Positions 19,204-22,019 of a DNA stretch of 38,071 nt are shown here, in pieces. The notes under the pieces are model-generated. The model was given only the letters and a program-made list of their open reading frames with translations, did no database searches and was not told the DNA's origin. Numbering within the stretch: position 1 is the first letter of the stretch; the number at the start of each line of letters is the position of its first letter. A program made the translations under genes and the position numbers. This stretch comes from an uncultured Cellvibrio sp. (GTDB taxonomy: Bacteria; Pseudomonadota; Gammaproteobacteria; Pseudomonadales; Cellvibrionaceae). The DNA is taken from positions 1-38,071 of the forward strand of contig CAMLOU010000025.1 of the NCBI GenBank assembly GCA_946481735.1, in the 5' to 3' direction.

Positions 19204-21126
19204 TCAGGAAGAAATACGTCCCCGGCGCGCTACATCAGCAGCCAGCAGGTCAATAAAGGCTTCCAGGCTCATTACACCCAAATCATTTCCGTCCCTTGTG
19301 CGAACCGCAACAGATTGATTTTCAACCTCTTTGTCGCCAATGACGAGCAGGTAGGGGACCCGCTGAATCGTGTGCTCGCGGATTTTAAAGCCGATCTTCT
19401 CGTTTCTCAAGTCCGAAATGACACGGAAGCCCTTATCACGCAAGGTTTTTTCCACTTTGCCGACATATTCCGCTTGATTGTCGGTGATATTGAGAACCAC
19501 CGCCTGCTCCGGCGCCAGCCAGGCCGGGAAAGAGCCTTCGTAATGTTCGATCAGGATACCGATGAAACGCTCAAAGGAACCAAGGATCGCCCGATGCAGC
19601 ATAACCGGCACCTGGCGCGAGCCATCTTCCGCCACATATTGCGCATCCAGACGGCCGGGCATGGAGAAATCCACCTGAATAGTACCGCACTGCCATACCC
19701 GGCCAATGCAATCTTTCAGGGAGAATTCAATCTTCGGACCGTAGAAGGCACCCTCGCCCGGTAAAAGTTCATAGGGCAATCCCTTACTCTGCAAGGCATC
19801 CATCAGGGCTTTTTCGGCCTTATCCCAGACTTCATCACTACCGACACGCTGCTCGGGGCGAGTAGAGATGCGGATAATGACATCACTGAAACCAAAGTCC
19901 GCATAAACCTGATAAAGCAAATCAGTAAAGGTTGAAACCTCGTCCTGGATCTGCGCTTCGGTACAAAAGATGTGCGCATCATCCTGCACGAAGGCGCGCA
20001 CACGCATCAAACCCTGCAAGGTTCCTGACGCTTCATTGCGGTGACAGGAGCCAAACTCGGCCAGGCGCAAAGGCAGCTCGCGGTAGCTCTTCAACCCTTG
20101 GTTGAATACCTGGATATGACACGGGCAATTCATCGGCTTCACGGCAAAATCCCGATCTTCCGATGCGACCGTGAACATATTCGCCCGGAATTTATCCCAG
20201 TGACCTGAACGCTCCCACAATGTGCGGTCCACCACTTGCGGAGTCTTGATCTCGCTATAACCATTGTTGCGTTGCACATCGCGCATATAGGATTCGAGCG
20301 TGGAATAGATGGTCCAGCCGCGCGGGTGCCAGAACACCATGCCCGGCGCTTCTTCCTGTAAATGGAAGAAATTGAATTTCTTGCCGAGCTTGCGGTGGTC
20401 GCGCTTGACCGCCTCTTCCAGCATTTGCAGATGCGCCGCTAATTGCTTTTTATCCGCAAAGGCCGTGCCGTAGATACGTTGCAACATCTTGTTGTTGGAA
20501 TCGCCGCGCCAATAGGCACCGGACACGCGCATTAATTTAAAGTGCGCACAAAAACGCATATTCGGCACATGCGGACCACGACACATGTCGATGTATTCTT
20601 CGTGGTGATACAAACCCGGTGTGGCATCACGGGGAATATCGCGTTCGAGGATTTCAAGTTTGTAGGGTTCGCCGCGCGCAGCAAACGTATCGTGTGCCTC
20701 TTGCCAGGACACTTTCTTTTTCACGACATCGTATTCTGTTTTCGCCAGCTCCAGCATCCGCTGTTCAAGGGCTGCGATGTCCTCATCCGTCAACATATGG
20801 TCGAGGTCGACATCGTAATAAAAGCCATTTTCGATGGTCGGGCCGATAGCCATCTTCACATCGGGCCACATCTGTTTGATGGCATGGCCGAGCAAGTGAG
20901 CGCAGGAGTGACGAATAATCTCCAGACCATCTTCGTCTTTCGCCGTAAAGATCACCAATTCAGCGTCGTCAGTGATCAGGTCGTGCGCATCGACACGCTC
21001 GCCATTCACGCGGCCTGCAATGGTGGCCTTGGCCAAACCGGGACCAATATCAGCAGCAACATCATAGACAGAGACGGGTTTATCAAACTGGCGCTTGGAG
21101 CCATCGGGAAGTGTAATAACAGGCAT
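19204..21126 (-). CDS. thrS: Threonyl-tRNA synthetase
   Basis: Charges tRNA-Thr and removes mischarged serine. The 640-aa protein has a TGS domain (1-61), an editing domain with HSCAH (H73, H77) and C181/H185 in DMCRGPHVP, a class II core with the zinc ligands C333 (PMNCPCH), H384 and H510, motif 2 near [22 protein letters not shown], and a C-terminal anticodon-binding domain (about 535-640). The editing and zinc residues are complete. AAGGA lies about 7 nt before the ATG. infC follows after 32 nt, giving the thrS-infC-rpmI-rplT order. A tRNA-like hairpin upstream of the ribosome binding site suggests translational autoregulation (separate entry). Confidence 0.98.
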
Positions 21127-21140
21127 GATCGATCCTTTTC

Positions 21141-21168
21141 AGTGGTGACCCCTACCAAAGGCCACTTG
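21141..21168 (-). promoter_or_regulatory. Candidate ThrRS operator mimicking the tRNA-Thr anticodon arm
   Basis: On the minus strand GTGGCCT (21165-21159) and GGGTCAC (21151-21145) form a continuous 7-bp stem with two G-U wobbles around a 7-nt loop, TTGGTAG (21158-21152). Numbered as an anticodon loop this gives U33, anticodon G34-G35-U36 (threonine) and A37. It ends 18 nt before the thrS start and just ahead of its Shine-Dalgarno sequence. In E. coli, ThrRS binds a similar anticodon-arm mimic in its mRNA leader and blocks translation. A second hairpin (CTTCCT/AGGAAG, 21192-21208) lies upstream. Confidence 0.65.
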
Positions 21169-21252
21169 AGTTAATTAATGCAGGGAAATGCCTTCCTATC
21201 GAAGGAAGCTGAAATATAAGAGGCGGGAGTATATAAAAGCGGGCGCCCCCAT

Positions 21253-21282
21253 ACCAGACTTTTTTGGACCAGGCTTTTTTGG
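21253..21282. repeat. Tandem 15-bp repeat upstream of doxX/thrS
   Basis: ACCAGACTTTTTTGG (21253-21267) is followed directly by ACCAGGCTTTTTTGG (21268-21282), differing at one base. It lies between the divergent thrS and DoxX genes. The role is unknown; it may be a local duplication. Confidence 0.7.
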
Positions 21283-21377
21283 GATATGCGAAAGCAATAA
21301 CGTGAAATGGACTGCGCCTGTAACAAAAGCGGCGACTGCGCATCTGTATCGCAACACCACACCAAGGATAAATTGCC

Positions 21378-22019
21378 ATGCCCCAGACCCGCTTGCTGCA
21401 AACACAACACCTGTTTGAGCAATACCTGCAAAAACTGCGACATATCGATGGCCTGGCCACCTTGGCATTGCGCTTTATCCTGGTACCGGTTTTCTGGATG
21501 GCGGGTATGCAGAAGCTCCTTCATTTCAACAGTACCGTTGAGTGGTTTGGCAATCCAGACTGGGGATTGGGATTACCGCTGCCGTGGCTGCTGGCGTTAC
21601 TGGCCACCGCCACCGAGCTGATCGGTGCAGCACTGTTAACCTTGGGCCTCTTTACCCGACTGATCACACTGCCACTGATTATTACCATGTTGGTCGCCAT
21701 CGCCAGTGTGCATTGGGAGCAGGGATGGCAAGCTATTGCAGATCCACAAGCACCTTTCGCTACAGAATCTGTTATCGCCTCCAGCGAAAAATTGGAGCGC
21801 GCCCGCGACATCCTGCGCGAACACGGTAATTACACCTGGCTAACATCCAGCGGCAAGTTCGTCATTCTCAATAACGGTATCGAATTTGCGGCCATCTACC
21901 TGAGTATGTTGCTGGCCCTGCTGTTTTTGGGTGGCGGGCGCTATGTCAGTCTGGATTATTGGTTGATGTATTGGTTGCGTCGCAAGAACGCAAGACACAC
22001 TGCAAATACGGCTGATTAA
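21378..22019 (+). CDS. DoxX family membrane protein
   Basis: Predicted inner-membrane protein of 213 aa with about four hydrophobic segments (near 27-44, 67-88, 90-108 and 168-185). The first carries the DoxX pattern LALRFILVPVFWMAGMQKLLHF. About 60 residues between the last two membrane segments (HWEQGWQAIADPQAP to LTSSGKFVILNNGIE) probably form a periplasmic loop or amphipathic part. The C-terminus RYVSLDYWLMYWLRRKN recalls DoxX proteins of copper-RiPP (bufferin/HvfX) operons, but this is from memory. AAGGA lies 9 nt before the ATG. It lies 45 bp upstream of an ECF sigma/anti-sigma pair in the same direction, so it is probably co-transcribed with them. Substrate unknown. Confidence 0.82.
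   Translation: MPQTRLLQTQHLFEQYLQKLRHIDGLATLALRFILVPVFWMAGMQKLLHFNSTVEWFGNPDWGLGLPLPWLLALLATATELIGAALLTLGLFTRLITLPLIITMLVAIASVHWEQGWQAIADPQAPFATESVIASSEKLERARDILREHGNYTWLTSSGKFVILNNGIEFAAIYLSMLLALLFLGGGRYVSLDYWLMYWLRRKNARHTANTAD

What the first reader, a model, noticed from the sequence alone, without database searches (positions are those of the whole stretch)
21127..21208. thrS leader hairpin copies a tRNA-Thr(GGU) anticodon arm
Seen: minus-strand 21165-21145 folds into a 7-bp stem with a 7-nt loop TTGGTAG. Loop positions match a real anticodon loop: U33, GGU at 34-36 and A37. It lies just before the Shine-Dalgarno sequence and 18 nt from the start codon; a second hairpin lies upstream (21192-21208). 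Established: E. coli ThrRS represses its own mRNA by binding an anticodon-arm mimic in the leader, using G35 and U36. Inference: the same feedback exists here, with a GGU anticodon in place of the CGU of E. coli. The chance of a threonine anticodon in exact register in this place is small but not zero.
Basis: partly seen in the sequence, partly recalled or inferred. Interest (0 to 1): 0.7.

Follow-up and report, generated by a model that had tools for sequence, protein, structure and literature searches.

The report
One-armed thrS feedback operator
Just before the gene for the enzyme that loads threonine onto its tRNA, the messenger RNA folds into a conserved copy of the threonine tRNA's reading loop, which very likely lets the enzyme hold down its own production; the trick is known from E. 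coli, but here only one of the two copies seems to be present.

Summary
Minus strand 21165-21145 is a 7-bp hairpin with loop UUGGUAG, 18 nt before the thrS ATG. It is homologous to domain 2 of the E. coli thrS operator: a covariance model built without the window and its named Cellvibrionales relatives finds it as the only match in the window (45.5 bits, E 2.7e-12). In 80 leaders (66 distinct) 98% of stem cells are paired, against 28-57% in slid controls. Loop bases G35 and U36 never change, while base 34 changes at least 20 times on the ThrRS tree; so GGU instead of CGU is no real distinction. The CACUG flank is also conserved, and a published mutation from a ceftazidime-borrelidin evolution experiment falls in it. 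ThrRS autorepression is the best explanation; it is inferred, not measured. In the family, 10 of 71 leaders with a -10-like box have a second mimic after it; E. coli has two arms. I call this a probable one-armed variant of a known operator.

The parts
19204..21126 (-). thrS, threonyl-tRNA synthetase, 640 aa, full length (TGS, SAD, class II core and anticodon-binding domains)
   Evidence: alignment to E. coli ThrRS 1qf6_A over residues 1-635 of both, 1018 bits, no gaps
21145..21165 (-). domain 2-like hairpin, the anticodon-arm mimic: GTGGCCT-TTGGTAG-GGGTCAC
21152..21158 (-). 7-nt loop UUGGUAG; position 34 = 21156 (G), 35 = 21155 (G), 36 = 21154 (U)
21140..21144 (-). CACUG 3' flank; its UG can pair with CA at 21168-21167 across an internal loop
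   Evidence: the leaders were anchored on CCACTG, so its invariance there is by construction; position of a published E. coli SNP
21167..21168 (-). CA of the 5' flank (CANGU), can pair with UG of CACUG
   Evidence: 66 of 66 distinct sequences form both pairs (64 C-G and 2 U-G; 66 A-U)
21133..21137 (-). Shine-Dalgarno-like AAGGA
   Evidence: by eye
21192..21208 (-). upstream hairpin CTTCC-TTCGATA-GGAAG; no NGU loop; in the place of the E. coli domain 4
21171..21191 (-). linker between the hairpins, mostly unpaired in the prediction apart from a 3-bp hairpin (counterpart of E. coli domain 3)
21228..21233 (-). -10-like hexamer TATACT followed by a G+C-rich stretch; presumed start of the mRNA near 21221
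   Evidence: TATAAT or TATACT in 71 of 115 family leaders, shuffled mean 6.3, maximum 14; the sigma-70 scan itself found nothing in 21100-21500

Best explanation
The hairpin is the operator of thrS, homologous to domain 2 of the E. coli thrS operator. When ThrRS exceeds its tRNA-Thr substrate, the free enzyme binds the anticodon-like loop through G35 and U36 with its anticodon-binding domain. So bound, it keeps the 30S subunit off the adjacent Shine-Dalgarno sequence and represses its own translation; tRNA-Thr competes and relieves the repression. In this organism, and in most of the related leaders examined, there appears to be one such arm instead of the two of E. coli. Shown here: homology, covariation, fixed G35/U36 with free base 34, position before the thrS start, a full-length ThrRS. 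Inferred: binding, repression, release by tRNA, and that one arm suffices.
For: Model R2, from 66 sequences that leave out the window, the named Cellvibrionales loci and also L024 and L054, finds the window hairpin as the only match (45.5 bits, E 2.7e-12). Covariation on 66 distinct rows: 98.0% of cells paired against 84.8% shuffled and 28-57% slid; five pairs with changes on both sides, 67 such cells. G35 and U36 are fixed in 80 of 80 anchored leaders; Fitch changes 0 and 0, against 20 at base 34; of 11 third codon positions (codons 2-12) ten change 16-24 times and one changes 3 times. Specificity: 68 of 229 class genomes have a match, one each, and 66 of the 68 lie directly before thrS. Family: 114 of 120 genomes, one match each. 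The E. coli K-12 record shows the same element, GTGATCT-TTCGTGT-GGGTCAC-CACTG. Mechanism in E. coli: PMC3858243 (section 7 and passages), PMC7373986 and PMC9976931 (passages). The enzyme keeps N575, E600 and R609 of E. coli ThrRS (alignment; that these contact the anticodon is recalled).
Against: No binding or expression data for this organism. The leader's folding energy is ordinary. RNAfold pairs part of the Shine-Dalgarno region with the 5' end of the mRNA even without ThrRS. The element is far from universal: 158 of the 226 class genomes with a thrS-query match have no R1 match (12 of the 226 matches are weaker than E 1e-30, so may not be thrS; strict filters lose weak R1 matches), and in 52 R1-negative thrS leaders NGU hairpins are not enriched (3 against 1.2 shuffled, or 2 against 1.1 with other stem limits). 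One family genome with an intact thrS (G024, L132) has no R1 match and no such hairpin that I could see. The second arm, part of the E. coli operator, is missing.
Confidence: 0.88

Rival explanations
1. Two-armed operator as in E. coli: the upstream hairpin 21208-21192 is a diverged domain 4 that still binds the second ThrRS subunit.
For: The hairpin lies where domain 4 would; it is predicted firmly (0.96-0.99) and its stem is kept in L146. Loop UUCGAUA keeps G35. Cellvibrio-type relatives have a CGU loop there (10 of 71 leaders with a -10-like hexamer).
Against: Positions 35-36 are GA in the window and AA in L146. Among upstream hairpins of the 115 family leaders GU is not the commonest dinucleotide (AA 15, GT 12), and 10 of the 12 are Cellvibrio-type.
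Confidence: 0.2
2. The hairpin is a vestige, or a ribosome-standby or RNA-stability element, kept for a reason other than ThrRS binding.
For: No direct binding data; the CACUG flank is conserved as well and is not part of an anticodon arm.
Against: Exactly the two ThrRS identity bases are frozen while the third anticodon base is free, which a generic structural role does not predict; the E. coli homologue is an established operator (PMC9976931 passages).
Confidence: 0.06
3. T-box or threonine attenuation leader.
For: Both are known ways to control thrS or thr genes elsewhere (recalled; B. subtilis thrS leader terminator in PMC3997798 passages).
Against: No Rfam match of such a family at gathering score in the window, or up to E 10 in 21050-21500; no terminator-like site in 21100-21500.
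Confidence: 0.01

Closest known systems
E. coli thrS translational operator, domain 2
   Same: Same gene, same place before the Shine-Dalgarno sequence, 7-bp stem, 7-nt loop with G35 U36; 3' arm and flank GGGTCACCACTG identical over 12 nt.
   Different: Loop UUGGUAG here, UUCGUGU in E. coli; two 5'-arm bases differ (GC here, AU in E. coli).
E. coli thrS operator, second arm (domain 4)
   Same: A hairpin lies upstream of a mostly unpaired linker in both.
   Different: In the K-12 record the upstream hairpin has an 8-nt apical loop AUUUGUUG, which can be read as UGU at 34-36 (the review PMC7373986 speaks of CGU in both arms); here the loop is UUCGAUA, without NGU.
Cellvibrio-type thrS leaders (L005 and, by likeness, L094, L107, L109, L151, L156, L157, L165, L166, L168)
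   Same: Same domain 2 and the same type of -10-like box.
   Different: They carry a second mimic, CCGCAC-A-(AUC/UUC/CUC)GUA(G/A)-GUG(C/U)GG, with a CGU loop.
Yeast AspRS mRNA and other aminoacyl-tRNA synthetase mRNA mimics
   Same: A synthetase binds an anticodon-like hairpin in its own mRNA (PMC7373986 and PMC9976931, passages).
   Different: Different enzymes and domain of life; no homology claimed.

Membership tests
thrS operator with a domain 2-type anticodon-arm mimic | Hairpin with 7-nt loop and G35 U36 directly before the thrS Shine-Dalgarno sequence | tested here: met
thrS operator with a domain 2-type anticodon-arm mimic | Homology to other leaders with compensatory stem changes | tested here: met
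thrS operator with a domain 2-type anticodon-arm mimic | Full-length ThrRS with N-terminal and anticodon-binding domains | tested here: met
thrS operator with a domain 2-type anticodon-arm mimic | ThrRS binds the hairpin and excludes the 30S subunit; tRNA-Thr competes | not testable with these tools
   no binding or expression assay available
E. coli-type two-armed (symmetrical) thrS operator | Second anticodon-like arm (domain 4) upstream | tested here: not met
   in 150 nt upstream (loops of 5-9 nt, uninterrupted stems of at least 5 bp with 2 G-C) only one hairpin, in three registers, none with GU at 35-36; L146 has loop UGCAAUA. Bulged or weaker arms were not searched in the window
E. coli-type two-armed (symmetrical) thrS operator | Unstructured linker (domain 3) between the arms | tested here: inconclusive
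   linker mostly unpaired in the prediction, with one 3-bp hairpin
T-box leader | Match to the Rfam T-box model | tested here: not met
   no match
Threonine attenuation leader | Terminator hairpin between leader and gene | tested here: not met
   no terminator-like site in 21100-21500; a leader peptide was not searched for

The most novel reading that the evidence does not exclude
A single anticodon-arm mimic is enough for ThrRS autorepression: in many Cellvibrionaceae the thrS mRNA seems to begin too close to domain 2 to hold a second arm, so the symmetrical two-arm, two-subunit operator of E. coli would be one form of a simpler, older or independently reduced one-armed operator.
Probability: 0.45. 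Interest if true: 0.5.

Novelty: new variant of a known kind. Interest (0 to 1): 0.42.

Why it matters
The E. coli thrS operator is a classic case of an mRNA that mimics a tRNA. The leaders collected here act as a natural mutagenesis of it: base 34 has changed at least 20 times on the ThrRS tree while G35 and U36 did not change, which is what ThrRS recognition of tRNA-Thr predicts. They also raise a question that can be tested directly: whether the second arm, and with it the symmetrical binding to both subunits, is needed at all.

Tried and rejected
Whole-genome work on the window itself: none held. Leader folding energy as evidence: uninformative. Rfam: no family. A sigma-70 scan found no promoter in 21100-21500; the -10-like box rests on its recurrence in relatives. 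The upstream hairpin as a second NGU mimic: rejected for the window. Searches allowed only uninterrupted stems and 7-nt or 7- and 8-nt loops (5-9 nt for the window), so bulged arms are missed; their shuffles, where run, keep base composition only. An attempt to show NGU hairpins in thrS leaders without an R1 match gave no enrichment (52 leaders, last 80 nt, 3 against 1.2 or 2 against 1.1 shuffled). Those 52 are not a random sample: they come from the better-scoring thrS rows listed, and two (L127, L130) are from genomes with an R1 match elsewhere. Several of the 52 look to the eye like intact or degenerate copies (L119, L120, L256, L258, L260, L289), so R1 misses some; I did not count them. 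The 38 R1 matches in 249 phylum genomes were not checked for position. Six paper searches (listings and abstract openings seen) showed no description of one-armed thrS operators or of a survey of thrS leaders. The founding E. coli papers (Springer 1989, Brunel 1993, Caillet 2003, Torres-Larios 2002 as cited; Romby 1996 recalled) were not read and may hold alignments of other species.

Caveats on counts: the leaders were aligned on CCACTG, so that flank is fixed by construction; L032, which lacks it, was dropped (80 of 81 leaders counted), and L054 has one extra base before the loop, so its stem is out of register (one search aligns it). In one search I required GU at 35-36 when locating domain 2, so the 115 of 115 there is not an independent count; bases 34, 37 and 38 are.

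Full report
What is there. The minus strand of the window carries thrS (19204-21126, 640 aa), followed by genes whose products match IF3, L35, L20 and the PheRS alpha chain in Pfam; thrS, infC, rpmI and rplT stand in the same order in the E. coli K-12 record. The thrS product has the TGS, SAD, class II core and anticodon-binding domains and aligns without gaps to E. coli ThrRS (1qf6_A, residues 1-635, 1018 bits). RNAfold gives its pairs probabilities of 0.96-0.98 in a transcript from 21221. Neither the leader nor the hairpin is unusually stable against shuffles, so energy alone proves nothing.

Is it chance? No. One genome-contig scan returned 80 thrS loci (66-83% identical in the best segment, Gammaproteobacteria by those titles that tell; the best 80 of 586 or more). 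In 79 of the 80 plus the window the same element sits before the start codon, 11-20 nt counted from the end of CACTG. L032 lacks the CCACTG anchor and was dropped, though it shows ATGGCCC-TTTGTAT-GGGTCGC. On 66 distinct sequences 98.0% of cells are paired, against a shuffled mean of 84.8% and 28-57% when the partner is slid; five pairs change on both sides, 67 cells in all. Pair 4 is the weak spot: 12 of 66 distinct sequences have no standard pair there, mostly A-C, which is A-C in 10 of 80. A model from 66 sequences without the window, the named Cellvibrionales loci, L024 and L054 finds the window element as the only match, 45.5 bits, E 2.7e-12.

What the loop says. In 80 leaders position 35 is G and position 36 is U without exception; neither base was part of the anchor. 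Position 34 is G 43, C 23, U 8, A 6; position 33 is U 70, G 5, A 5; position 37 is A 53, G 24, U 3. On a ThrRS tree of the 80, parsimony needs 20 changes at position 34 and none at 35 and 36; of the third positions of codons 2-12, ten need 16-24 and one needs 3. This is the pattern expected if ThrRS reads G35 and U36 and ignores base 34, as it must to charge all threonine isoacceptors (PMC7373986 passages name the G and U as identity elements). It also means that the GGU of the window is one of four permitted spellings rather than a difference in kind from E. coli. The real tRNA-Thr(GGU) anticodon arm in three relatives reads CACCC-TTGGTAA-GGGTG (a fourth genome had no pattern match): the loop differs from the window's in one base, the stem does not match.

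The flanks. Of the 80 sequences 77 have CA, 2 UA and 1 AA before the hairpin (the last is the out-of-register L054), and the CA can pair with the UG of CACUG across an internal loop: 66 of 66 distinct sequences form both pairs (the CACUG side is favoured by the anchor). A 2026 E. coli study reports a G-to-A change at 1,802,589 in three strains of a ceftazidime-borrelidin A evolution experiment and hypothesises that it weakens thrS autoregulation (PMC13148393, passage). If the coordinate is that of NC_000913.3, where the base is G as stated, it is the second C of CACUG. So an independent experiment points at the same flank; the authors' interpretation is itself untested.

How widespread. In the family of L002's genome (Simiduia aestuariiviva, Cellvibrionaceae by NCBI) 114 of 120 sampled genomes have one match each. 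Of the six misses, two (G046, G083) show no full thrS, one thrS match is truncated (G070), one starts at residue 19 (G036), one is split and 57-59% identical (G111), and one (G024) has an intact thrS without the element as far as I could see. In the class 68 of 229 genomes match, one each; 60 lie 7-20 nt before a thrS match on the same strand by coordinates, six more were read directly before thrS, and two are elsewhere (L111, L112). Of the 229, 226 have a match to the thrS query, 12 of them weaker than E 1e-30; so many class members lack a recognisable copy, and 52 R1-negative leaders show no excess of NGU hairpins (3 against 1.2, or 2 against 1.1), although a few of them look like copies the model missed. 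In the phylum 38 of 249 match (positions not checked). Rfam gave no match for it.

The second arm. E. coli's operator has two anticodon-like arms (PMC9976931 and PMC7373986 passages; ThrRS binds both hairpins, PMC3858243 figure legend). In the K-12 record the upstream arm folds with an 8-nt loop AUUUGUUG. Scanning 150 nt upstream of domain 2 for 7-nt or 8-nt loops with GU at 35-36 finds one in 25 of 80 leaders, against 4.4 on average and at most 10 in 200 shuffles; the next commonest dinucleotide occurs in 13. So a second mimic is real in part of the set. In the window the only upstream hairpin of at least 5 bp is CTTCC-TTCGATA-GGAAG, without NGU, and the closest leader found, L146 (93.4% over 151 nt), has CTTCC-TGCAATA-GGAAG: same stem, different loop. 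Among 115 family leaders (114 plus the window) a GU hairpin occurs in 12, ten of them of the Cellvibrio type, such as CCCGCAC-A-AUCGUAG-GUGCGGG in L107, while AA occurs in 15.

A TATAAT or TATACT hexamer lies within 95 nt upstream of domain 2 in 71 of 115 family leaders, against a shuffled mean of 6.3 and a maximum of 14 in 300; the 8 nt after it are 82% G+C against 49% for the leaders overall. Taken as the -10 box, with a start 7 nt further on, it leaves at most 20 nt before the CANGU flank in 14 of 71 leaders, too little for another such arm; one of the 14 (L188) also has a tRNA end just upstream. Only 10 of the 71 have an NGU hairpin after the hexamer, 14 with laxer stems. In 27 of 115 a tRNA 3' end lies in the leader; 18 have neither sign. 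The window's own hexamer is at 21233-21228. The reading that most of these leaders, including the window's, form one-armed operators follows on the condition that the hexamer is the promoter, which is not shown.

Mechanism. Shown: homology to the E. coli operator, conserved pairing, frozen G35/U36, place before thrS, intact enzyme. Inferred from E. coli: ThrRS binds the arm, its bulk keeps the 30S subunit off the Shine-Dalgarno sequence, and tRNA-Thr competes. Open: whether one arm gives full repression, and what the upstream hairpin does; a 5'-end stabiliser is a guess.

Verdict. The finding is correct in its core, corrected in its details, and known in kind. What is added is the comparative evidence and the probable one-armed form.

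Noticed in passing
window 19171-19169 (minus), infC start: infC seems to start with AUC (GGAGATAAAACT-ATC-AAACGAGAT; reading frame), a rare start codon like the AUU recalled for E. coli infC, which underlies IF3 autoregulation.
   Followed up: partly
window about 17860-17824 (minus), between rplT and pheS: A G+C-rich hairpin followed by a T run precedes pheS; by eye no Phe-rich leader peptide like E. coli pheM is evident (one short ATG frame reads MTVRCL).
   Followed up: no
L001, L008, L173, L217 and other thrS leaders: A tRNA-Val(GAC) gene ends shortly upstream of the thrS leader in these four; a tRNA 3' end motif occurs in 27 of 115 family leaders. The mRNA 5' end may there come from tRNA processing.
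   Followed up: partly
family thrS leaders, 8 nt after the -10-like hexamer: The stretch is 82% G+C against 49% in the leaders overall, like the discriminators of stringently controlled promoters (recalled); thrS transcription may be under ppGpp control.
   Followed up: no
L111 (G347:C8:71092-71122): A 31.3-bit match, GCGCCAC-TTTGTAT-GTGGCGC-CACTC, lies before an ORF of 193 aa that is not thrS; chance or another ThrRS target.
   Followed up: no
L127 (G347 thrS leader): Two NGU hairpins seem to stand in tandem just before thrS, GGU then CGU, without the CACUG flank; the first was found by the scan, the second by eye.
   Followed up: no
window 21214-21209 with 21142-21137 (minus): RNAfold pairs UUUCAG near the mRNA 5' end with CUGAAA next to the Shine-Dalgarno sequence, bracketing both hairpins; the letters are the same in L146, so there is no covariation to judge it by.
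   Followed up: no
upstream arms in L005, L007, L038, L044, L057, L060 and E. coli L226: Second arms with an 8-nt loop mostly carry an extra A on the 5' side of the seven anticodon-like bases (6 of the 7 such arms, L027 having G; E. coli).
   Followed up: no
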